Assembly: GCF_028389875.1 (NCBI RefSeq)
Contig: NC_084663.1
Span: forward strand, 212,815,876-212,879,875
From: Rhea pennata
Taxonomy: Eukaryota; Chordata; Aves; Rheiformes; Rheidae
DNA length: 64,000 nucleotides
Direction: 5' to 3'
This document shows, piece after piece, positions 266-59,400 of this stretch (its first letter is position 1; every line of letters starts with the position of its first letter). Both the position numbers and the translations under genes were made by a program. The notes beneath the pieces were generated by a model. It was not told the DNA's origin. It saw only the letters and a list, made by a program, of their open reading frames with translations, and did not search any database.

Positions 266-5673
<5,408 letters not shown>

Positions 5674-13560: not shown

Positions 13561-13703
13561 GGCTACTATTCAAACATCACTTCCTCCAAGCTCAAGAGCG
13601 GTGCATCCCTATCAGTAAGAAGTGCAGCAAAAGGGGCAGGAGACCTGCCTGGGTGAGCAAGGAGCTCTTGGCCAAATTCTGACAGAAGTAGAAAATACAC
13701 AGA

Positions 13704-14984
13704 ATGTGGAAGAGGGGACAGGGTACTTGGGAGAATGATAGGAATACAGTCAGAGTGTGTGGAGATGCGGTGAGGAAGGCTAAGGCCCAGTTGGAGTTGA
13801 GTCTGGCAAGGGATGTCAAGGACAACAGGAAGGGCTTCTTCAAAAACCTCAGCAGCAACAGGAGGACTAGGGAAAACGTGGGCCCACTACTGAATGGGGC
13901 AGGGGCCCTGGTGACAAGGGATGCAGAGAAGGCAGAATTACTGAATGCCTTCTGTGCTTCAGTCTTCACTGCTAAGGGCAGCCCCCAGGAATCCTGCAGC
14001 CTGGACGTGAGGGAGAAGGTCTGGAGAAGGGAAGACTTTCCCTTGGTTGAGGAGGAAAGGATTAGAGACCTTCTGGGCAGGCCAGACATCCACAAATCCA
14101 TGGGCCCGGATGGGATGCACCCATGGGTCCTGAGGGACCTGGCGGATGTTGTTGCCAGGCCGCTCTCCATCATCTTGGAAAGGTCCTGGAGAACTGGAGA
14201 GGTGCCTGAGGACTGGAACAAAGCCAATGTCACTCCAGTTTTCAAGAAGGGCAAGAAGGAGGACCCGGGCAACTACAGGCCAGTCAGCCTCACCTCCATC
14301 CCTGGAAAGGTGATGAAACAGCTCCTTCTGGATGTCATCTCCAGACATATGGAGGGAAAGAAGGTGATCAGGAGCAGCCAGCATGGATTCACCAAGGGGA
14401 AATCCTGCTTAATCAACCTGATAGCCTTCTGTGATGGAATGACTGGCTGGGTGGATGATGGCAGAGCAGTGGACATTGTGTCCCTTGACTTCAGCAAGGC
14501 TTTTGACACTGTCTCCCATAACATCCTCCTAGAGAAGCTCAGCAAGTGTGGGTTAGATGAGTGGACAGTGAGGTGGATTGAGAACTGGCTGAAAGGCAGA
14601 GCTCAGAGGGTCGTCGTCAGTGGCGTGGAGTCCAGTTGGAGGCCTGTGGCTAGTGGCTTCCCCCAGGGCTCAGTCCTGGGTCCCATCCTGTTCCACTTCT
14701 TCATCAATGACCTGGATGAGGGGACAGGGTGCCTCCTCAGCAAGTCTGCTGATGATGCCAAGCTGGGAGGAGTGGCTGACACACCCAAGGGCTGTGCTGC
14801 CATTCAGAGAGACCTGGCCAGGCTGGAGAGCTGGGCAGAGAGGAACCTCCTGAGGTTCAACAAGGGCAAGTGGAGGGTCCTGCACCTAGGGAAAAGTAAC
14901 CCTGGGCACCAACCAGTCCAAGCTGGGGCCTGCCCTTGTGGAGAGCAGCTCTGCAGAGAAGGACCTGGGAGTGCTGGTAGATGA
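13704..14984 (+). pseudogene. CR1 ORF2 reverse-transcriptase fragment, broken (copy 1)
   Basis: A 426-codon open stretch of a non-LTR reverse transcriptase. Visible blocks include [19 protein letters not shown] (about residue 175), [44 protein letters not shown] and the catalytic-site block SADDAKL (about residue 350). The motif normally reads (Y/F)ADD; here the aromatic residue is Ser. In-frame stops TGA at 13680-13682 and TAG at 13689-13691 cut it from upstream ORF2 sequence. Compared with copy 2, an extra ACCA near 14907-14914 (a duplication of acca) shifts the frame, and the rest of ORF2 continues in another frame at 14938-15372. An additional base near 15291 and a TAG at about 15313 damage the tail. 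It is not expected to make an active enzyme. Confidence 0.9.
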
Positions 14985-29766: not shown

Positions 29767-30755
29767 GCTTTTGGCTGCCGGACAAAGTCTTCCCTTGGAG
29801 ATGGTGCTCTTGGCTGAATACGGCCCTTGGGGGGCTGTGGGGCTGCTGAGGGTCGTTTCCCCACCACCACCATGCTGCTTCCCAATCTCATCATCTCTCC
29901 TTAGCAGCAGGGCACAAAGAGTCGCTTAGCAATTCACAGGAGCAGAGAGGGAGGCGAGCCAGGACGTGCTGAACTGCACAAAATAGGATTTATCTTCAAA
30001 GAAAATTTGCCACCCCCTTTCTGAGCTCTTTTTGCAAGGGATTTAATCCTCCCCCCCTCCTCCCCAGGCACTCGGCAAACTGTGAGCCGTGGGAGCACTT
30101 TTTGCCTCCCCACAGTTGCTTTTCGATGCTGGGAGGGCGACTTCTTAGCAAGTTGGGCCACCCCGCGACAGCGCCCAGGTTTGTGCTCCAGCGGTTCAGG
30201 TCCGAGCCCTGCCGCGTGCAGGCGGCCGCAGGGCAAGGCCACTGCCCGCAGCGCCGTTCGCAGCCGTGAGCGAGGCCAGGGCAAAAGCCCCGTCTTTTCC
30301 CGGTGACCGTGGCTACCAGCGACGAAGCCCGTGGAGCGGAGCTTCGTATCAAACCGGCCAGCCTGTCTCCGTTTCAGGCTGGGTCTGGGCCTGAACCAGG
30401 AGGTGTGAGCTCATCGGTGCCGCCGGTTCGCCGCTCGGCTGAGCAAACCGGCGCACGGACGCGGACGTCTCTGCCGTCCCGCGGCTGGGGCCCGCACCTG
30501 GCTGGGTGGGTGGGGTGGAAGGTCTCCTCCGTGGAGCAGCTGCGTAAGAAGCTGTTCCTGACACTGTTCAGCGACTAATTTCCGCCCTTGCCCATCTACA
30601 TGTCCCAGAGGACAGACTCCCGCTTCCTCGGAAGGCCAGTCCTCCGCACAGGTGGGACCCCAAGACTGAGCTAAGCGGTCCCCAAGCTTATGGGTTATAA
30701 CTAAGCTATATGACGGAGCTCTGGAAGGAAGGAAGGGGGAGTGGGAAGGAGGAGT

Positions 30756-31055
30756 GGAACCTTCCAGAAGGTGGGAAGGAGGGGTGGAACCTTCCAGAAG
30801 GCAGTGTGTGTGGGGGGGGGGTGGTGGTGGTGCCTTCCTAAAAGGGAGGGTGGAAACTACCAGCAGGTGGGGAGGGGGGTGGAACCTTCCAGAAGACAGT
30901 GGGGGGGTGGAACCTTCCTAAGGTGGTGGTGGGAGATGGAACCTTCTAGAAGGGGGGGGGTGGAACCTTCCAGAAGATGGGGGTGGGTGGAACCTTCCCA
31001 AAGTGGTGGGGGGAGATGGAACCTTCCAGAAGGTGGGGGTGGAACCTTCCAGAAG
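30756..31055. repeat. 11-unit minisatellite of heat-shock-element units
   Basis: The unit is about 27 bases, core gtggaaccttccagaagg in a G-rich frame. Seven units contain a perfect three-box heat-shock element (GAA-2nt-TTC-2nt-GAA), with cores at 30757-30769, 30787-30799, 30882-30894, 30939-30951, 30963-30975, 31019-31031 and 31042-31054. Units at 30910 and 30990 keep two boxes. Units near 30830 and 30852 are degenerate. Spacing from 30882 on shows a three-unit higher-order period of 79-81 bases (30882 to 30963 to 31042; 30910 to 30990; 30939 to 31019). HSF1-family trimers are known to bind nGAAnnTTCnnGAAn. Binding here is inferred. Confidence 0.9.
30812..30830 (+). repeat. G-run in the minisatellite, possible G-quadruplex
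   Basis: Ten consecutive G residues followed by (TGG)3. Together with other G4-G9 runs between 30871 and 31062, the + strand could form G-quadruplexes. Confidence 0.6.
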
Positions 31056-31789
31056 GCCGGGGAGGATTGGGGTAGTGGTGGTGGTGGAGAACGACCCGCG
31101 GCTCGGGCAGTCGTTTCCTTGGGGCAGCACGCGTTAGCGCAGCCCGCCGAGTGCTTTGGTGCGGAGACGCCGGTCTGACTTCGGATTAAGTGAGGCCTCC
31201 GCTGCCGACGGCGCGTTAGGAGTCATCCCCAGGGACCGGACGTCGCGGGGGAGAAATAGGCCCCAAACCTGAGGGGTTATTGTAAGGCTACCTTGAAGGA
31301 TTAGATAGCAGCTGAGACTATTTTTTTTTGGGGGGGGGAGGCTAGTGAAAAGAGGGATACGTGCAAAATTTTGGTTCAACTTTGGAGCAGCTGAGGCCTC
31401 TCTGGAGTTGTTCGGCTCTGGGATGAAGCCAGGGATTAAGGCACCTTTGATATCCTCAGTTCTCCTGGTCAATGTGTGGCTTTGCTTTAAGGCTGATAGC
31501 CCCCTCGGAGTGAGATTAGCCTGTCCCCGTTCAGATGGGAACAGCCCCAAGGCTGGTTGCCTGCAGGCCCCCTTTCGGCTATGGGGGGGGAAGAAGCTCT
31601 TAGATGTCCTCCGTGACCATCTCTGAGCTCACTGGGAGGTCCCAGGGCACAGGTCAGCTCGCTCGGGGACGTGTCCAGAGACAGGCTGGATAAAGCTGCC
31701 AGTGGAAGCACCTTTTTGATCCTGGAGGATCAGGGCAGCCTTTATGAACAGCTGAGATTGCCAAGGTCTAAAGTGAGGGGGACGGATCA

Positions 31790-31831
31790 GCAAGCTTCAT
31801 GGAGGACTGGCTGGTCCTCCATGAAGCTTGC
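31790..31831. repeat. perfect 18-bp inverted repeat with 6-base loop
   Basis: The left arm 31790-31807 (gcaagcttcatggaggac) is the exact reverse complement of the right arm 31814-31831, separated by tggctg. A transcript in either direction would form a strong hairpin. The stem is shorter than a typical pre-miRNA. Confidence 0.95.
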
Positions 31832-33530
31832 CTGAAACTCCCTCCTTTTTCCTAAAAAGGCTTCATCTTGCAGAGTGCTCAGGGGGAGGACTCCTCTGAG
31901 AGGCAGCTCTGCTTCCCAGCAGATTTTGTGGCTGTGGTTTTGGCAGTGAACCATAGTCCAGATGATACTGGCATATAGCCTGGCCTCTTTCTGTGATCTC
32001 TTACTTTGAGTTCCTGCCCTCAGCATACCTCTGTGACTAATGCTAAGTCAGCTCTTCCCAAATTCATCCAGTCCTGTGCACAGAGTGTCAGTCAGACTCC
32101 TTTGAGTCTTAACACCAGTAAACCGGTAAAAACCAGTAAACCTCATGTCCTCAGGGCCAAATGCAGTCCCAGACCTGGCTGATTCAAGGATACAAAGGTG
32201 GCATCTTGCTTCAGCACTTGGAGATATATGCAAAAAGCTTGAACTGAGCTAAAAAAAGCTTGAGGCTTTGAGCGGCGTTACTGAGTCAGTATTGGATCTT
32301 GGTGAGGAAAAGCAAATTGACCGCACAAAATTGATTAGTTGTATCAGAAAATCATGTCGTTAACATTTCATGTATCCACAGAGAAATCTAGCTCTCACTA
32401 GACACTGGAGCTCAATTTTGAGCAGGCCACACCACCCATTTGAAGCACAAGCTCGTGCTGGATGTTTCAACCCTTAGACTTTAGTGCAAAGACTTCTCTG
32501 TGATGGGAGTAAGTTGCCATGTAACCCTAATGGGTACAAGATTTCCATTCTATTTTTAAGTTAATTTGTTTGAAATGGGCTTTGATTATTTGTGTTTGTT
32601 CAAATTGTGGTCACATGTTACAAAATACTGGGCATTAACCTTTGTGAAGACCTCACAGTTGCCATGAAAGCTACAGCCATTCCATGTTGGAGGTGTCCTA
32701 GAACAAATGAAATCAGGAAATACTGTGCCTGCAAGAGCAGAAGCTGGTTTTCCTCATTAATCTCTTCTACATTCATTCTTTATTTCCTTTGCTAAGCTCT
32801 ATCATTTATTTGCAGTAGTTGTTGTGACCTTCTGTCTCAAAGTCAGCAGCTATTCAGTTCATGAGATGTACTTCACACATTTTTGTCTCTAGCTGTACAT
32901 ATTCCCTGGGATCCAACAGAGAAGTGAGATGTAATTAGGACTTAGAAATAAACTGTTGAAGATCTTTGTGATAAATTACCATGTCATCTGCCAGGGAAAG
33001 GAAAGTGTGTAGAGCATATTCCATATCATAGGGCGGTTATGTCTATCTCTGTTTTATATGAGCCTTCTTCATTTTCAGTGTTAAACCACTTCAGTTCCTC
33101 AAGGAGAAACTGAAGACAGATGATGGTGAAATAAGAGCAATTCTAGACTGTGATCCAAATTCTCCAGTTTTAATTCACATGTTTTAATTCATGTGACTTC
33201 AGTGCAGTGCTACACAACAGCCAGGGCTGCCTTTGGTGCCCCTGGCTGTTTGTGACCGAGGCAGCCCTACAACTAAAGACCATTTCCACTCCAGTGGGCA
33301 ACAATGCACCCTGCAGTTCAAGCAAGTGCAGACAAAGCCTTGGGAGGAGGAGAATACAGCAGGGCAGACTCTGTAGAATAGAAATGCCAGTTTAGAAGAT
33401 GCTCTTAGCTGAGCTTTTCCAGCTGATGGTGAGGTCTCTGTGCAGCTTACAGCAATGGCTTGATTTAAGAGTTGCAGTAATTTTAGATCACTTTTCGAGC
33501 AAAAAAAAAAAAGCGGTGCCTTTTGCTCTC

Positions 33531-38179: not shown

Positions 38180-39045
38180 ATCCTATGCACATAGGGTAAG
38201 TACTCATTTATGAGCCTCATGCCCACACGAGGAACACAGATAACAAATCTTGTGGTCCTCTGCCAGCAAAACTACTGTTTTTGATGCAATGTCTTGTTCA
38301 TCTATTGCTGAAAGAGAAGGATAAAATCCTAAATGAGGCCTGAGGAAGAAAAGATCCTCTGATTCAGTGATATTGAAGATCTTCATTTGGGGATCCTCAC
38401 AGGAGCAAATCCTGTAGGCACATGACACTGTTTTGGTAAGAGCACTGGTGGTTCAAATATATTCCATGGCTTGGGTAACTTGGTAATTAATTGTTGGCTT
38501 TATGCTTTAGGCCAGCTGATTAAGATAGCCTGATCAGCTATCCTCTGCACCACTCGCTGCCAGTGGCATAATGCCAGCACTCCTCCCTCCCCCTGATAGC
38601 TGTAATTCGAAAGCAGGGTAATCATGTTGCCACACCACTCTGGGATCAAATTTTTAAGCTTAGGTGACCTAGTGGTGTCCTTATCTGATACTGATGAGTG
38701 TTTCAGTGGTGGCTTCACTCCACTATATCCAAGAGTATGTGATTTCCCGTGACTGTCCCGGATGGGCAGACACATCTGCTTCAGGACAGCATGGCATGCT
38801 TTGGCATTATTTAATGAGCAGAGGTGAGAATCGCCTGCTCTTTTTATCACCTTCAATTACATCGCAGCTGCAGCTAAGGTGGGACATTTGGGAAGCGTAG
38901 TGGGGATAAGAAAAATTCTTTGCATTCTTGCCTTTCTGGTTTATTTTCACCTTCTGCAAACTGATCATAGTCTTTTTTTTGGTTTACCTAATAATTTCTG
39001 TAAAGACACCCAGAGCTCTGAGTTATTTGCAAGCAATTTACATAT
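38180..39045. other. unique sequence between two CR1 insertions
   Basis: No gene recognised. The 118-codon minus-strand ORF at 38500-38856 has no domain evidence. Confidence 0.5.
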
Positions 39046-39049
39046 GTAT

Positions 39050-40192
39050 TTGACTTCAGCAAGGCTTCTGACACTGTCTCCCATAACATCCTCCTAGAGA
39101 AGCTCAGCAAGTGTGGGCTAGACGAGTGGACAGTGAGGTGGATTGAGAACTGGCTGAAAGGCAGAGCTCAGAGGGTCGTCGTCAGTGGCGTGGAGTCCAG
39201 TTGGAGGCGTGTGGCTAGTGGCGTCCCCCAGGGCTCAGTCTTGGGTCCCATCCTGTTCAACTTCTCCATCAATGACCTGGATGAGGGGACAGAGTGCCTC
39301 CTCAGCCAGTCTGCTGATGATGCCAAGCTGGGAGGAGTGGCTGACACACCCGAGGGCTGTGCTGCCATTCAGAGAGACCTGGAGAGGCTGGAGAGTTGGG
39401 TGGAGAGGAACCTCCTGAGGTTCAACAAGGGCAAGTGCAGAGTCCTGCACCTAGGGAGAAATAACCGTGGGCACCAGTGCAAGCTGGGGCCTGCCCTTGT
39501 GGAGAGCAGCTCTGCAGAGAAGGACCTGGGAGTGCTGGTGGATGACAAGTTGACCATGAGCCAGCAATGTGCCCTTGTGGCCAAGGCGGCGAGTGGTCTC
39601 CTGGGGTGCATTGTGAAGAGTGTTGGCAGCAGGCGGAGGGAGGTGATCCTGCCCCTCTCCTCAGCCCTGGGGAGGCCTCATCTCGAGTCCTGTGTCCAGT
39701 TCTGCACTCCTCAGTGCAAGAGAGACATGGAGCTACTGGAGAGAATCCAGCGTAGGGCTACGAAGATGATCAGAGGACTGGAGCACCTGCCCTATGAGGA
39801 ACAGCTGCGAGAGCTGGGCCTGTTCAGCGTGGGGAAGAGAAGCCTGAGGGGGGATCTTCTCAATGTGTACAAGTACCTGAAGGGAGAGTGTCAAGGGGAT
39901 GGTTACAAACTCTTTTCAGTTGTCCCGTGTGACAGGACAAGAGGTAATGGGCAGAAACTGAAGCACAGGCAGTTCCGCCTGACCGTGAGGGGGAATTTCT
40001 TCCCTGTGAGAGTGACGGAGCCCTGGACCAGGTTGCCCAGAGAGGTTGTGGAGTCTCCTTGTCTGGAGATCTTCAAGGCCCGCCTGGATGCAACCCTGTC
40101 TAACGTGCTGTAGGTGACCCTGCTGAGCAGCGAGGTTGGACTAGATGATCTCCAGAGGTCCCTTCCAACCTTACTGATTCTATGATTCCGTG
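39050..40192 (+). mobile_element. CR1 LINE, 5'-truncated, well preserved, copy 2
   Basis: Homology to copy 1 starts at ttgacttcagcaaggct and runs through the C-terminal ORF2 and 3' UTR to gatctccagaggtcccttcc, ending in attctatg and attccgtg, the CR1 terminal 8-mers. The ORF2 remainder is fully open, unlike copies 1 and 3. It lies about 1 kb upstream of the GDPD4 first coding exon, in the same orientation. Confidence 0.95.
39133..40113 (+). CDS. CR1 ORF2 C-terminal reverse-transcriptase fragment, open (copy 2)
   Basis: 326 codons from the first Met. The same frame is open back to the element start at about 39049 ([15 protein letters not shown]), so the Met is not a real initiation site. Blocks in order: [42 protein letters not shown] with Ser in place of the aromatic residue of (Y/F)[58 protein letters not shown]. 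It ends LDATLSNVL with TAG at 40111-40113. The endonuclease and the N-terminal reverse-transcriptase blocks are absent, so it is not functional alone. The intact frame reflects recent insertion rather than selection. Confidence 0.85.
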   Translation: MRWIENWLKGRAQRVVVSGVESSWRRVASGVPQGSVLGPILFNFSINDLDEGTECLLSQSADDAKLGGVADTPEGCAAIQRDLERLESWVERNLLRFNKGKCRVLHLGRNNRGHQCKLGPALVESSSAEKDLGVLVDDKLTMSQQCALVAKAASGLLGCIVKSVGSRRREVILPLSSALGRPHLESCVQFCTPQCKRDMELLERIQRRATKMIRGLEHLPYEEQLRELGLFSVGKRSLRGDLLNVYKYLKGECQGDGYKLFSVVPCDRTRGNGQKLKHRQFRLTVRGNFFPVRVTEPWTRLPREVVESPCLEIFKARLDATLSNVL

Positions 40193-41201: not shown

Positions 41202-41410
41202 GAGGAAAATGAGATAAACCCACTCAGATGGATGCCAGTGCCACCAGCCTTAAGAGGATCAAGTTTGGGAAGCTGAAGGTGGTACGTCGGCGCTTGCTAC
41301 AGAGGTATGAGCATCAGCCCTTCGTCTCCTGCTTGGCTGGCTTCTACAGCTGCCGGTGGAAGCGGTACCAACGCAGAAGGATCGAGCCCGGGAAATGCTG
41401 CTGCAAGACG
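41202..41410 (+). CDS. GDPD4: GDPD4 first coding exon with 26 bases of 5' UTR
   Basis: The acceptor AG is at 41200-41201 and the donor gtaaat at 41411. The start ATG is at 41228. The exon encodes 61 residues, including the family block [21 protein letters not shown] 3-codon upstream ORF (ATGAGATAA, 41209-41217) ends 10 bases before the start. The acceptor shows that at least one non-coding exon lies upstream. Confidence 0.85.
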
Positions 41411-47400: not shown

Positions 47401-50400
47401 CATGCAGGTCCACATGCTGCCCTTCTGCTAGCCTGCAGGGACATGTGACATGGGGAGAGGGGAGGATGATGCTTCCTGTGACTGAGCAATGCTTGTCCCA
47501 GCAGGGCTTTTTTTCAGTGAAGAATGCTTCCAGGAGGTGTTCCTCCATCTCTGAGTGCAGAGCTTCCCAGTCACAGCATCTTCTTAGCCTGAACCCCACA
47601 TGGCAGGCAGGCATATCTGCGTTATAAATGCTTAAAGAAGCTTCAAAAGGCAGAGTCATCCAGTGTTTCTGTGCTGAATAGCTCCATGTGTGTAACTGGG
47701 TGCCATCTCTAAGCATGTGGAGGAAAGGAAGGTGATCAGGAGTAGTCAGCATGGATTCACCAAGGGGAAATCCTGCTTAACCAACATGAGAGCCTTCTAT
47801 GATGGAATGGCTGACTGAGTAGATGAGGGGAGAGCAGTGGATGTTGTCTACCTTGATTTCACCAAGGCTTTCAACACTGACTCCCAGGGGCCAGTACTGA
47901 GTCCCATCCTGTTCAACTTTTCCATGAGTGATCTGGATGATGGGGCAGAGAGCCTCCTCAGCAAGTCTGCTGATGGTGCCAAACTGAGAGGAGTGGCTGA
48001 TACACCAGAAGGCTGTGCTGCCATTCAGAGAGACCTGGCCAGGCTGGAGAGTTGGGTGGAGAGGAACCTCCTGAGGTTTAACAAGGGCAAGTGCAGGGTC
48101 CTGCACCTAGGGAGAAATAACCGTGGGCACCAGTCCAAGCTGGGGTCTGCCCTTGTGGAGAGCAGCTCTGCAGAGAAGGACCTGGGAGTGCTGGTGGATG
48201 ACAAGTTGACCACGAGCCAGCAATGTGCCCTTGTGGCCCAGAAGGCCAATGGCCTCCTGGGGTGCATTGTGAAGAGTGTTGCCAGCCGCTCTCCTCAGCC
48301 CTGGGGAGGCCTTATCTCGAGTCCTGTGTCCAGTTCTGGGCCCCCCAGTACAAGAGAGACATGATGATCAGAGGGCTGGAGCACCTGCCCAATGAGTAAA
48401 GACTGCGAGAGCTGGGCCTCTTCAGCATGGGGAAGAGAAGACTGAGGGGGGATCTTATCAGTGTCTACAAGTACCTGAAGGGAGGGTGTCAAGAGGATGG
48501 GGCCAGATTCTTTTCAGTGATGCCCAGCAATAGGACACAAGGCAATGAATCAAAAGAAGTTCCACCTGAATATGGGGAAAAACTCTTTCCCATGAGAGTG
48601 ACAGAGCACTGGACCAGGTTGCCCAGAGAGGTTGTGAAGTCTCCTCTGGAGATATTCAAAGCCCGCCTGGATGCAGCCCTGTCTAACATGTGCTAAGTGA
48701 CCCTGCTTGAGCAGGGGAGGTGGACTAGATGATCCCCAGAGGTCCCCTCCAACCTTAACCATTCTGTGATTCTGTGAACGGCGTCTGTACCACAGAGTTC
48801 AAATTAAAGAGCTGTTATTGATAGGGAACAATATTTTAGTGTGCCAAGACTACTGAGAGAGAGCAGAGGCAACTTCTGGCCTTCTTCTGTAGCCTGTGAT
48901 GAATTCCTCTTCAAAACACTGGCAACATCACAAGCTAATAAAGACAGCTCAGCTCAAGCTTATCTTCTCAGTGTGGACACTGGCCAGCAGCTGCATTGCT
49001 TCTATACATTTCAGACAATGGATAGCCAAAGGACTTGCCCCATAATGAGTTATAGCACATATTCAAGTTGAACAGTGCAATTGTGGGAGGAACTGGAGAT
49101 CTTTACCCAGGCGTGGTTTCCACAGAGATTCTGAATACAGTCTCCAAGCTGCATATTTGCGGTCTGTCAAGAGGAGAGGCAAAGTTTCCTTGTGATGTTT
49201 TGCATCAGTAGCCTGTCACGTCAGAAAACGGAGCACACTGATACACTTGTTGGAGCATAGAGATTTTACAGCAACTGATAGCTGGCCTGGTTTTGTTTGC
49301 AAGTGCTTTACCCTCTTCCTTAATGATGACATCCAACCAGAGCCCTGCAAGCATGCTTCCATGTCGTTATTGTGAACCAGTGAAGCAAACACTCTTCTGC
49401 CCACCGACCACCACTGGCCGAACAAAACACTGCACAACAAAACAGACGGAGACTCTCCGTCTGCATGCATCAACATAATTTTTTCAGACAATCAGTTACA
49501 ATTAATCAATTGCCGTTGCTCCCCAGGACTATTTTCCCATCCCCATTACAGCTAAAATGTTAAACCAAGGGGTCTAATTGCAGGACGATTCATGCTCAGT
49601 GGAGAAGAAAAAAGTTTCCTTATTCAGTATTTCAAAAACTAGCAGATAATATTTTCCCCTCTGCAGTTCAACCATATTTTTTCCAAGGATTTGAGGGACC
49701 TGACTTATGACTGTATAAAGAGGTTCAGATGTGTTGTGGCCTTTGCTGAGAGGACTCAGAATAGTATATTGGCACTGAAGAGCAAAGAGTGATCTCAAAC
49801 CACTAAGAGGCTGGGACACCAACAAAACTCCAAGTACCTGCATTTTTGCCAGAAGATGAATGTAGATACCGAATTCTGCTATTGTGAGTGTCTAAGCAGA
49901 TGTTTTAGGTGACTTCAGTAGCTAACTGCGCCTTCTCTGTCCATCTGGCAGCAAGCTCAGAGCCTGTCTAAACCTTACCAGCAGTATTGAATTCAACAAA
50001 TGGCCGTTTCCATGCTGGAAGAGAGTGAGGAAAGAGTCCATTATCCATCCTTTTGCAGCATAACCTTATGATTAGTGCACCCACTCAGAAAGAGGGACAC
50101 GGAAGTTCAGTCCTCTCTGCAGTGAATCCTCTCTCTCACTATTTGGAAGTTTCCCTTAATTACTACTTGGCGGGTAGATAAGTGGAGGGAGAGACTTCCA
50201 CACCTCTTACTGCTACTGAAGAGGAGAAGAGTGCAAATGTTGGAGGCTGTAAGATTCAGTGGGACAGCAGGCCTGGCAAGAGGGACCCTGGCTCTAGTCT
50301 CAGTAGGAATAGGCTGACCTATTTTATTGATCACCAGAGTCCATGTGTCTGTGTGCTTGTGTTAGGCAGTCCCTGGAGGGGACATGTGTGGAGGACCCAG

Positions 50401-53400
50401 ACCTGCAGCTGCTGATTGTCTGTGTCCCTGAAGTGCTCTCTAAGTGCAAGCATGCGAGAGACTGCTAAAGCCAGTAGCTCTCAATAGAAGAGCATGTTGG
50501 ACAGGTCCTGAGGCAGTTTTTGAGGAGTGAAGCTATTTGACTGTGGCTTGAGATACTGTTCTAAGTTTCAGGGGTGCATGGAAAGCAAATAAAACTCAAG
50601 CTGACTGCCAGAATCCATGCAGGATAGGCCTTGTCCACATTACACCAGCTCACTGGTCCATCAAGATGTGTTCCCCAACTGTAACCAAGTCTGAGAAGAG
50701 TTCCTTCTTCTGAGGATAAAACCTGATGCTCATTCTTCTTGTACACAGATAATGAGCAGTTCTTATCAGCCATAGAAGTGAGCTTTCCCTCAGAAACCAT
50801 TCCCAGATGTGCTGCAAGGTTCACACAGAAGTTATCCTGCAAGTCAGAAATGGGGGGGGGGGGGGGGAGAGGGGGGAGGAAGTCTGGCTGAGCACAACCT
50901 ATGGAGTAACTGTTTGGATGTGCCTCAGGCAAAGACCAGGTGCTTCTAATATTGCTTGCAGAAAAGAGGAGATTTTGACAGTGTTTTCCCCCTTTCCTTT
51001 CCTCTTTCCTTTCCTCTTTCCTTTCCTCTTTCCTTTCCTCTTTCCTTTCCTCTTTCCTTTCCTCTTTCCTTTCCTTTCCTCCTTCCTTCTTCTCCTTTCT
51101 TGCCTTCTTCCTTCCTTTCCTCCTTCCCTCTCTCCTTCCTTCCTTTTCTTCCTTCCTTCCCTCCTTCCTTCCATTTCTTCTTCAGCTTATTTTAATGGGG
51201 CTGGATTAAGATCTTCAGCAGTAATTCAATTCTCTGTGAACTGCTCCCATGGTTAGTCATTATATGCTGAGTGTAGGATTCAATTAAAGGAGGCTAACAT
51301 ATCAAGAAGCACTTTAAAAGCTGATCTGTATTCATTGCTGAGCTTATCTCTCTTCAAATCAGCACCATCATGGAAAGAGTGTGTGCTTGTAGCTGCATCA
51401 GAAACAGCTTATGTTCCTTTGTAGTTAGATTTTGGGAGAGCAGAACCCCTTCCCATTATATTATTGCTCTAAATCTGTATATCCTTTGATATAAACCCAC
51501 TGTGTGACAGTCTGGAGGGACCTGGATCCTAAATTGTCTTTGTCAGTGGAACACTCATTTCTGCTAAGAGATGCTTTTCTCTGCATTTGTGCTTCTGAAA
51601 GTCATCTCCTGGTTCAAAGGTCTGTGACAATTTGGAGAGTCTCCAGCAAGCGCTGGATTGGTTTTCCTTGTACTTTACTTGTGGGAGTGTCACTCTGGTG
51701 TTCAAGGCCTACTGGTTGTCCCCTGCCATGGGATGAGGATCTTACGTTCCCCAGGGACTGCCACTTGACATAAGGAGAAAGGATCAGGCCTACCATAGGG
51801 TCAGAGCTAAGGACTAAAAACAAACCCAACAAAACTAGGGTTTTTGAATCTCCAAGGTAGTTTTTCGTGTTCCAAGATATACCTGTCACTTGCATTTCTT
51901 GCAGTTACTGTGGAAGCAATTTCCTTTGATCTCTACTTTATATTTCCATGGTTCTTTGGAGACACTTTTATTCTCTGAGCTCTGTCCCCTGACTGATACG
52001 CCTCTAATCACAATGAATGAACAGAAAATAGACAAAGATAGTGCTATATTGGTTTACGTTATAGCAGTTGGTCCTGGCCAGCCTCTCTCTCTAAGAGTTT
52101 GTCTTCTCAGAGAAAGAAGAGCCATCAGAAGTGACCAAAATGCCCAATTATCTGCTAGGTGTGGAAGGCTGTGGTCCTTCAGAGTGATTGTGATATGTGC
52201 TTGACCATTTCAGGAGCATATTTTTGTTACCAAAACACCCACCAGTTCTCTCCATACATCAGTCTTACTAACAGCAATTACTAACAGCATTGTGCAGAAA
52301 GTCCTGGTGTAACATGACTTTCCAATACAAAAATAATTCCAGACATACTTCACCAAATGCATTTTATCGTTCTGTAAGGATACAAACCACATCTTCTTGG
52401 TTTCCCAGGTCCTAGCGATGTGTTTGCTTGCAGAAGGTCAGCAGCTGTACCTGCACTGGAGTCACAAGGTAAGGAGAATCAGAATATTGTGTTAACCCTA
52501 ACCTATACTTCAAACCAGTTGTGTCTGTGGCATTTCTCTACATGAAAAAGCAGCTTAGACTGTGGGGGGAAAGGAATAGAGGGAAGGAGTTAGCCTTAGG
52601 AGAGTTTAGATGAGAATGATGTCTCCATCTGAGTTAATCAGCCCAGCCTTCCTGTACAGGTGGTGGAGGAAAACAGAGCCTCTGAGGATGCAGTTCATTC
52701 AGATGGTTGCAGACAACTAAATTAAGAGGAGATGAGTCACATCTGAAGTACCTTTTTTCCCCACTGACTCTAAAAGGAGCTTGCAGTGACTCATTCAGAT
52801 GAGGCTATCTATATTTGACATTCTACTTGTGGTAACATGTAGGTGACTTATGCTAACCTATAAGTAGTATGCTGTAAAAGCAAACTTTCCTTGGGAGGCA
52901 CAGTGTAAGCCTCTGCTCTGAAGCAGGCTCCAGCAGCTGTAAACAAAGTGGCTGCCTCTGCAGAACAGAAATCTGGCCTTTCCAAGGCATCCTGGTGTCA
53001 TATGCCTTTTGGATGGTGTGGGAAATGCCACCTGGGATTTTGAAGATTGAGAAACAAATCCTTAGGGAACCATTGCTGCAAAGTAACATCTTAGAGTCAC
53101 CTTGTGTAAAAAATTCTTGCAAGTTATGTGAGGTATTTAAAAAATCAGCCTTTAGCCGTGCAGTTTATGTGAGAACTCTTGTAGCATGACTGTAAATCTT
53201 ACAGTGATAAAGGAATAGCTGAATATGCAGATACTTGATCATCCATTTCTTCATTTAAATAATGATAACAGTCATCTTTACTACTGCAAATTGGCTCCTG
53301 GAAGAGCCAGAAAGGTGAGTTTTAGGTAGAGCTATTTGTGGAAAAAATGAGACTGCATCCTTTGATGGAAGAGATTAAAGACTGATTATTAAGGTGTTGA

Positions 53401-56400: not shown

Positions 56401-59400
56401 AACTGGATCTTTTATATTATATGAATTAGTGCTATACTGGTGTAAAATACCAAATTTTTATCACTCAGGTTTGTTGACATCAGTTTAAAGATGTAGTTGC
56501 AGTGTAGTATTGAGATGACTGTTAGCTGCATTGGATAGAATTGGACTGGACTGGTTTGCATTGGATTGGATTGGACTGGACTGGGTTAGATTGGATTAAT
56601 TTGACATTTTCTGGAAGAGGCTCACATATTATGATGTAGCAGTAATGGGGAGAGAGAGAGAGAGAGAGAGAGAGTCCTGCTCTGAGACAGTGCACTGAGC
56701 CTTTGTGGAAGAGGACAGCCTTGCCTGCTTTGACTGACTTAGGAGAAAGGAGAGCTGCATACCAAAATGAGGGCTGCTCCTTAGCCTGGGCTCATGAGAG
56801 GCGTGAGCTGCTGGTATCTGCAGCAGTAGCCCCTCTCTGTGGAAAGTTGTAGCCGTGTTGGGGCTTGTTTCTGCCTGTCTCCATACTTCATCCTTTGACT
56901 GAAATCTTTTTCTCTCCTTGCCAGATCACAGCTCCCTATCTCCACATAGGAGCAATAACCATCATGGTCCTCCTGTCCTGGCCTGTGGCTCTGCATGCCA
57001 TCAGAACAGATAAGAAAGGTACAGTAGCTCTGCTCCCAATAATATAAGACTCATGTCAGCATGAGAAACCAAGCATGCAGAAGCCCTTTCACCTTACATC
57101 TGCACTCCAGCTGCAGGTGGCTTTTATCCTGTGGGAAATTAGCAGGGGTAGGGCTTGGGGCCATGCACTGTCCTGTGGCTTTCTAGACTCATTACTGGTC
57201 TGCATGCTCCCTTGCACAGTTTTGGCCTATACCAGGGCAGTAGCTGGGAATGCTTTGGAGATTGTCACAGGCTAGATAATCATTCTCAGAAAGGAGTTTA
57301 ATCTCAGCGATCCTGCTTTGAGGGGAAAAACAATCTGGCTTCATGGCTGTGAAATGTGCTCTACACATTTGCATCTGAGCTGTAGAATAGACCGTGACAT
57401 TTTATATACCATATAGACCCTGCTTTAGACACTGAGAGGTGATGGTTCTGTAACCAGAGTCAGCATGTTTTACCATTTGGACTGGCAGAACTGGAGGGCT
57501 TACAGCAAATACTCCCCTAGCTATTGAAGCAAAACTGGCAGTTCTCACTTTTGATGCCCAGAGTAGGTGTTGTGACTGCTTGGCCCGCTGACTGCACAGA
57601 CAGCCCAGCAAACATGCTTAATCAAAACAGGGAAACAGGGACTTCCAGGAGGCAGCTTATCCTAGCCTTCTGACAGTGCCTGTCTCTCTCCTGTGCTACA
57701 GAAAACCTAGGCCATGAGCTTAGATCTAAGCTGGACTTTATGAAGCTTTCCATCCATGCACACCTAATTGCAAAAATAACTACATGGATTTCTACAAACT
57801 GGATCCCTTTTGCTCTTCAGTATTATCCTCAGTGTGTCAGACGAATAGAATTTAGATCGTAACTGAAAGACGAAGTACAATTTTGCATGCCTGAGGAGAT
57901 CAGCAGAAGTCCCTGTGTTCTGAGACCTGCATGGAAATCCTGCAGGAGAAAGCAATCAGTGGCAGCTCTTTTGGCTGACTCTTTCTTGCAATACTCAACT
58001 TCATTGTCTCAAAAGGGTTCTCTAATTCAGTCACACCACTTCAGACATGTGGATCTCAGGAGAGGCCAGCTGAAACAGGGGAAAGTACTTTTTGATCAGT
58101 TGGTAAGGGACATTAGTTTTCCTTTTCTGGTCTAATCCCCTGGTGAGTGCCTTTCTAGCTCTGAGAAGTGTGATACAGTAGGGTAAGTGCAGGACCAGCT
58201 GCCTGACTCCAACACTGCCTCAGTTTCTCCATATATTCAAAATTATACTCTCATACAGAATGGGCTGGTGGAGCAGTTTGTTTCCTGTCTAGGATTTCCC
58301 TGCATCTGCTGCAGCTGGGGATGGAGATGGTGATGTCCTGCTGGGACCTGAGACATTACCCTCAGTGGCTAATGGACACTCAGATCAATACATCAGCTTG
58401 GTGTAAACCCCAATTCATGCAGAGTCACTCGTGTAGTGTGCAGTTAGGTGGTGGTACCCATCCAAGAAAGAAACGTTGGCCAAAGGTACTCACTTCTCAG
58501 AGGAACTATTTTGTTCTCTGAGGTAAAAGTTGCTCACTGGCGTTCTTGAATAATGTGTCGCCAGGCTCCCAGGAAGGCCCTAGATAACAGATTGGCAGGT
58601 TTCTGAAATGCAATGCCCATGCAATCAGGGTCTGTAGCAGGAGAACCCACTTACATGGCATACAGAAGGTCACTGATAGCAGTCTCAAAGAACTGAGGAA
58701 ACTTTACCCTAGGGGCACAGAAGATTGTTGAAGGAGAAAAGTTTTTCCTCTTCTTCACTGTGATTGAAATTTCAAAATATTACTTGTGCTTATCTAAGTA
58801 AGAAACAAAAGCATCTCTTTGTTGAGGATTATTCCTCCATATGGGAAATTTCACTGTACCTCATCTAAAGAAAAATAAATTAAGTCTTTGTCTTGCTCTA
58901 AGTCACACTGAGATGTAACTGCAGCACGAAATCTGCATTTCTAGCCTAGGCATCCCAGATCCTTGCTCTGAATAGTGTATTTTCCTGGATTGCATGGGTG
59001 GAGTGAATGTGAAAGTTAGGGGAAGGAGGGATGTGCAAGGGATGGGACAGAGTCCAACAACTATTTAACTAGAGGGCTGTATTAAAAGTCAACCTGCAAA
59101 GCAAACCCATCTATTACTACATGGATTAACTCTAGCCTTCCTCCTTCAAATTCTTGCAGTTGTTCAGGTGATAATTGTTGGTCCATACCTGGCTATCCTT
59201 CTCTTTCTTTTCTTGATACCTCTGGGGATGTACTCACCTTGTATCAGAGAAGTGGGGACACTTGGACCAAAGCCAGCCCTCATTGGACACCGCGGAGCAC
59301 CAATGGTAGGTTCAGAGAAGATATTTTACATCATTCCTTCATCCTGTATATTTTTACTGTCATCACCATCTTCTTTTCTTCCAAGAGTTATGGAAGAAAT

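What the first reader, a model, noticed from the sequence alone, without database searches (positions are those of the whole stretch)
30756..31055. Tandem array of perfect heat-shock elements inside a CpG island
Seven of eleven tandem units contain a perfect nGAAnnTTCnnGAAn element and two others keep two of three boxes. The match is in the sequence; that HSF trimers bind this motif is established. One unit (core 30939-30951) has the ttctagaa form found in classic strong elements. A minisatellite whose repeat unit is itself an HSF site, sitting in a promoter-type CpG island, would be a very high-capacity HSF platform. The parallel is human satellite III, which recruits HSF1 to nuclear stress bodies. 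Whether any gene responds is inference.
Basis: partly seen in the sequence, partly recalled or inferred. Interest (0 to 1): 0.8.

Follow-up and report, generated by a model that had tools for sequence, protein, structure and literature searches.

The report
Bird minisatellite carrying heat-shock-factor sites
A short tandem repeat upstream of a bird gene carries the heat-shock-factor binding motif in most of its units; the motif is really there, but it looks like a lucky founder unit copied by ordinary repeat growth, and nothing yet shows that it responds to heat.

Summary
The array at 30741-31056 has 11 units; seven carry a perfect GAAnnTTCnnGAA, two keep two of three boxes and two keep one. 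The rest of the window has no perfect three-box element. The window is from a bird, its GDPD4 exons closest to ratite proteins among the 120 compared. The array lies 25.1 kb past the PAK1 stop and 10.2 kb before the GDPD4 start codon. The array has 0 CpG (21 expected) and interrupts a CpG-rich stretch that may be, but is not shown to be, the GDPD4 promoter.

The count overstates the surprise. A random 27-bp unit holds a perfect element with chance 2-3 in 10,000, so catalogues of 10^4-10^5 minisatellites should hold a few to a few tens. Tandem and 80-bp higher-order duplication then multiply it. Box positions are no better kept than within-core spacers (7 of 99 against 5 of 44 changed, p = 0.51, low power). 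My reading: a local G-rich minisatellite whose founder unit held an HSF site; competent to bind HSF by sequence, probably without selected function. The satellite III parallel is weak. Binding, heat response, polymorphism and conservation could not be tested.

The parts
30741..31056 (+). G-rich minisatellite: 11 units (first core at 30755), core TGGAACCTTCCAGAAGG plus a variable G-rich spacer, unit lengths 23-43 bp
   Evidence: TRF; unit listing; 0 CpG, 145 G of 316 bases; GC skew 0.52
30757..30769 (+). perfect three-box HSE, unit 1
30787..30799 (+). perfect three-box HSE, unit 2
30882..30894 (+). perfect three-box HSE, unit 5
30910..30922 (+). two-of-three-box HSE, unit 6 (third box lost)
30939..30951 (+). 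perfect three-box HSE with TTCTAGAA, unit 7
30963..30975 (+). perfect three-box HSE, unit 8
30990..31002 (+). two-of-three-box HSE, unit 9 (third box lost)
31019..31031 (+). perfect three-box HSE, unit 10
31042..31054 (+). perfect three-box HSE, unit 11
30874..31055 (+). higher-order repeat of about 80 bp (units 5-7 repeated as 8-10)
   Evidence: TRF period 80, 2.3 copies, 90% matches; unit 6-9 similarity 0.90, 7-10 0.83, 5-8 0.82
30017..30661 (.). CpG island, GC 0.65, o/e 0.765; possible GDPD4 promoter or first exon (inferred)
30950..31408 (.). second CpG-island call; its CpGs lie downstream of the array (31057-31260: 24 CpG, o/e 1.12)
41228..41410 (+). first coding exon of GDPD4; a splice-acceptor-like TTTTTTCAG ends 26 bp before the ATG (read by eye, not scored)
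   Evidence: tblastn of 4 bird GDPD4 proteins; sequence

Best explanation
It is a short, local, G-rich minisatellite. Its founder unit by chance contained a perfect three-pentamer heat-shock element, and replication slippage or unequal exchange copied the unit, first singly and then as an 80-bp block of three, giving seven perfect HSEs. By sequence each intact unit could hold one HSF trimer after stress, and a CpG-rich, possibly promoter-proximal site may be open enough for that, so some stress-induced HSF binding is plausible as a by-product. I think it most likely that the array has no selected role as a heat-response element. Shown: array, motif, higher-order duplication, gene positions. 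Inferred: the duplication mechanism, the accessibility, any binding, the absence of selected function.
For: All 7 perfect sites of the window lie in one tandem array, none outside. A perfect HSE in a random 27-bp unit has chance 30 of 148,148 (array composition) to 46 of 148,148 (window composition), so a catalogue the size of the curated human one (228,486 tandem repeats, PMC8096271, passages) would hold about 46-71 such founders; the number for a bird genome is not known to me. An 80-bp higher-order repeat copied a unit with a broken third box (units 6 and 9, similarity 0.90) together with intact ones. Changed cells: 7 of 99 at box positions, 5 of 44 at within-core spacer positions, 4 of 44 at core flanks; Fisher p = 0.51 and 0.60. 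Folding of the G-rich strand is unremarkable (z -0.68, 23 of 100 shuffles at least as stable).
Against: The 17-bp core is much better kept than the G-rich spacers (9 of 11 units keep TGGAACCTTC; unit lengths vary 23-43), which selection on an HSF site would also give, and the box-versus-spacer test rests on 11 units, with unit 6 aligned by hand. The position beside a CpG-rich stretch upstream of a gene is where a regulatory repeat would sit. No comparison with another bird's DNA could be made, so conservation, which would contradict this reading, is not excluded.
Confidence: 0.65

Rival explanations
1. A selected heat-responsive promoter or intronic enhancer: HSF trimers load on the array after heat and drive GDPD4 or a non-coding transcript from the CpG island.
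For: Seven perfect HSEs within 316 bp, CpG-rich DNA on both sides, GDPD4 next downstream on the same strand, and an acceptor-like sequence before its first coding exon that allows an upstream first exon. G-over-C skew turns positive from the array on (array 0.52, downstream 0.27, against -0.04 in the upstream island), as seen downstream of many CpG-island start sites (general knowledge).
Against: No box-specific conservation. No TATA or CCAAT consensus and one SP1 consensus in the upstream island part. No transcript or binding data. In the library searched, GDPD4 with 'heat stress' gave 2 papers; in the chicken one (PMC8476150, one passage read) GDPD4 is listed under metabolic, maintenance and reproductive roles from land-use association, not heat; the other, on Arabidopsis, was seen in the listing only.
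Confidence: 0.12
2. The array matters through another property of its core or spacer: the core also contains matches to a relaxed kappaB-like consensus (GGRRNNYYCC) and to TTCnnGAA half-site pairs, and the spacers are G-rich zinc-finger-type sequence; an unrelated factor or G-rich DNA structure could be the relevant feature.
For: Relaxed kappaB-like matches: 16 strand-counts (8 sites, as the pattern is its own complement) in the array of 44 in the window; RBPJ consensus 2 of 19 (consensus strings recalled). A minisatellite that binds NF-kappaB is known at HRAS1 (cited in PMC8096271, passages).
Against: The strict kappaB consensus GGGRNWYYCC and TTCnnnGAA each have 0 matches in the array, and no four-run G3 quadruplex pattern with loops of 1-12 was found on either strand of 30641-31160. 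Strand folding is at shuffle level.
Confidence: 0.13
3. A stress-body-like nucleation site comparable to human satellite III, transcribed after heat and sequestering HSF and splicing factors.
For: Tandem units with HSF sites.
Against: 316 bp of unique-locus array between two protein genes, against satellite III with 5-base units in large pericentric blocks (PMC9032817, passages); [quoted passage not shown]
Confidence: 0.02

Closest known systems
Canonical heat-shock element (nGAAnnTTCnnGAAn)
   Same: Three contiguous inverted pentamers in 7 of 11 units
   Different: Usual HSEs are not tandem minisatellite units; binding and heat response untested here
HRAS1 minisatellite with NF-kappaB sites (Trepicchio and Krontiris 1992, seen only as a citation in PMC8096271)
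   Same: A minisatellite near a gene whose repeat unit is itself a transcription-factor site
   Different: Different factor, sequence, species and gene; there binding was reported, here not tested
HSE clusters in Caenorhabditis Helitrons (PMC6927752, passages and section 9)
   Same: Repeats spread or multiply many HSEs in a short stretch
   Different: Those are transposons and HSF-1 binding was measured. Here it is a single-locus minisatellite; no Helitron was recognised, though I made no proper search for one. [quoted passage not shown] it scanned with another pattern (printed as NGAANNTCCNNGGAN), so this array is at most a small counter-example
Human satellite III / nuclear stress bodies
   Same: Tandem DNA that may attract HSF1
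   Different: 5-base units, large pericentric blocks, reported in ape and human cells; here about 27-bp units in 316 bp between PAK1 and GDPD4

Membership tests
Heat-shock element | At least three contiguous nGAAn pentamers in alternating orientation | tested here: met
   7 of 11 units perfect
Heat-shock element | Bound by HSF in cells after heat | not testable with these tools
   No ChIP data for this species were at hand; one search listed 6 papers for HSF1, ChIP-seq, chicken and heat shock element, of which I read passages or sections of two (PMC6927752, PMC3021535), both on invertebrates
Heat-shock element | Confers heat-induced transcription | not testable with these tools
   Needs reporter or RNA data
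Minisatellite | Head-to-tail units of roughly 7-100 bp | tested here: met
   TRF periods 23-30 bp and 80 bp
Minisatellite | Copy number varies between individuals (VNTR) | not testable with these tools
   One sequence only
CpG-island promoter | GC > 0.5 and CpG o/e > 0.6 over at least 200 bp | tested here: met
   Met by 30017-30661 and 30950-31408 and by the block 30100-31260, not by the array itself, which has 0 CpG
CpG-island promoter | Transcription start site inside | not testable with these tools
   No transcript data; an acceptor-like sequence before the GDPD4 ATG exon is compatible
Satellite III-type stress-body locus | Short 5-base-unit satellite in large pericentric blocks | tested here: not met
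   About 27-bp units, 316 bp, between PAK1 and GDPD4 exons
Helitron-borne HSE cluster | HSEs inside a Helitron | not tested
   Only a listing of CTAG occurrences in 30001-32000 was made, which is not a Helitron test

The most novel reading that the evidence does not exclude
A palaeognath-type bird has gained, by minisatellite growth inside a gene's CpG-rich first-exon region, a copy-number-tunable heat-response element: intact units recruit HSF trimers, so array length sets the strength of heat induction of GDPD4 or of a non-coding transcript from the island. That would show tandem-repeat expansion building a stress enhancer without any transposon.
Probability: 0.08. Interest if true: 0.65.

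Novelty: new member of a known kind. Interest (0 to 1): 0.3.

Why it matters
If HSF does load on it, the array would be a simple natural case of repeat growth producing a dense stress-factor site, and length variants would let dose and response be measured. If not, it illustrates how a perfect, repeated motif can look like a designed platform when one chance founder has merely been copied.

Tried and rejected
Satellite III-like stress body: rejected on unit, size and location. Canonical G-quadruplex array: no match to four G3 runs with loops of 1-12 on either strand; two-G quadruplexes not tested. Unusual strand folding: z -0.68. STAT (TTCnnnGAA) and strict kappaB sites: 0 in the array. Array as coding sequence: the + strand frame 30714-31175 found no relative at E <= 10 among 4756 candidates; the other frames were not searched. 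Other copies of the core in the window: none with fewer than 2 mismatches to TGGAACCTTCCA outside the array, and none with 2 or fewer to GGAACCTTCCAGAAGG. Tandem copies in viral contigs: 0, uninformative because that collection is not one of birds. Whole-genome search with a four-box pattern: not answered in five tries of the same request, so how many such arrays the genome holds is unknown. Seven paper searches: 'heat shock element' with 'minisatellite' gave 3 papers, of which I read passages of one and saw the other two in the listing only; I saw none that describes an HSE minisatellite, in that library. The third protein search was not used.

Full report
What is there. A G-rich tandem array lies at 30741-31056 (TRF rows 30741-30801 and 30844-31055). 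I divide it into 11 units with cores starting at 30755, 30785, 30828, 30851, 30880, 30908, 30937, 30961, 30988, 31017 and 31040 and lengths of 23-43 bp (the last unit's end was set by me). Seven of 11 contain a perfect GAAnnTTCnnGAA, two keep two boxes, two keep one. No perfect three-box element of either phase occurs in the other 63,684 bases, where a Markov model with the whole window's composition expects 0.78 per 64 kb; one-mismatch sites are 12 outside and 1 inside.

Surroundings. Bird GDPD4 proteins found by search (best 120 of 2099 listed) were used to map exons: four of them were aligned and place the first coding exon at 41228-41410 and further exons up to 63908, all on the + strand. 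Among the 120 proteins the window's exons are closest to Apteryx (95.2%), Struthio (95.0%) and Dromaius (94.8%), followed by Morphnus and a tinamou at 93.9%; the window is thus from a bird, probably a palaeognath, but the margin is small. PAK1 exons lie at 332-5670 on the + strand with a stop at 5671 (query recalled). The array is 25,068 bases past that stop and 10,172 bases before the GDPD4 ATG. The first coding exon is preceded, 26 bases before the ATG, by TTTTTTCAG (read by eye), so an untranslated first exon further upstream is likely, and the CpG-rich stretch at 30.0-31.4 kb is a reasonable candidate; no transcript evidence was available. The array itself has 0 CpG against 21.1 expected and lies between two island calls.

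Why it is probably ordinary. First, the search space: a random 27-bp unit carries a perfect three-box HSE in 30 of 148,148 (array composition) to 46 of 148,148 (window composition) trials. The curated human catalogue has 228,486 tandem repeats (PMC8096271, passages), which would imply about 46-71 such founders in a human-sized set; I have no bird count, but a few to a few tens is a fair inference. Many other factor motifs could have been noticed in the same way. Second, the copies are not independent: units 5-7 recur as 8-10 in an 80-bp higher-order repeat (TRF; unit 6-9 similarity 0.90, 7-10 0.83, 5-8 0.82), and the copied block includes a unit with a broken third box. Third, inside the 17-bp core, changed cells are 7 of 99 at box positions, 5 of 44 at within-core spacer positions and 4 of 44 at core flanks (Fisher p = 0.51 for box against spacer, 0.60 for box against spacer plus flank). 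The test is weak: 11 related units, one aligned by hand. Against my reading, the core as a whole is far better kept than the G-rich spacers, which selection would also produce; slippage in G runs gives the same picture.

Could it bind HSF? By sequence yes: each intact unit has the three pentamers that an HSF trimer needs (established knowledge). Number of sites does not translate into occupancy: in C. elegans a Helitron with 10 HSEs upstream of col-88 had lower HSF-1 occupancy than hsp-70 with two HSEs (PMC6927752, passages). Chromatin state before heat matters for which HSEs are bound, as summarised for Drosophila (PMC3021535, one passage). So weak to moderate stress-dependent binding is plausible, and a heat-responsive GDPD4 is possible but unsupported.

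Comparison with known systems. Satellite III is a 5-base-unit satellite in large pericentric blocks, with putative HSEs reported in silico (PMC9032817, passages); [quoted passage not shown] The array shares with it only tandem arrangement plus possible HSF sites. [quoted passage not shown] their scan pattern differs from mine, and I did not check which birds were in their set). This array would be a small exception to that statement.

Limits. The tool for the window's own genome did not answer, and the sequence collections searched hold no birds as such, so neither genome-wide frequency nor conservation was tested. No HSF position weight matrix was available; the scan used the consensus. Verdict: real motif array, new member of a known kind (minisatellite carrying transcription-factor sites), probably neutral by-product of repeat growth, worth one cheap comparative check.

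Noticed in passing
31790-31831: Perfect 18-bp inverted repeat with a 6-base loop (arms 31790-31807 and 31814-31831), 0.7 kb downstream of the array; possibly a template-switch product or assembly fold-back.
   Followed up: partly
13692-14984 and 39022-40113 (+): Reverse-transcriptase reading frames (Pfam RVT_1, E 2.1e-26 and 6.6e-16), nearly alike in parts; probably CR1 LINE copies (family name recalled). A similar frame at 47819-48364 had no Pfam match.
   Followed up: partly
50991-51182: Long pyrimidine array of CTTTCCTTTCCT-type units (TRF).
   Followed up: no
56529-56605: ATTGG-type array with a 30-bp higher period (TRF).
   Followed up: no
30500-31750: G-over-C skew turns positive from the array onward in the direction of GDPD4, the pattern expected downstream of a CpG-island start site with R-loop potential.
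   Followed up: partly
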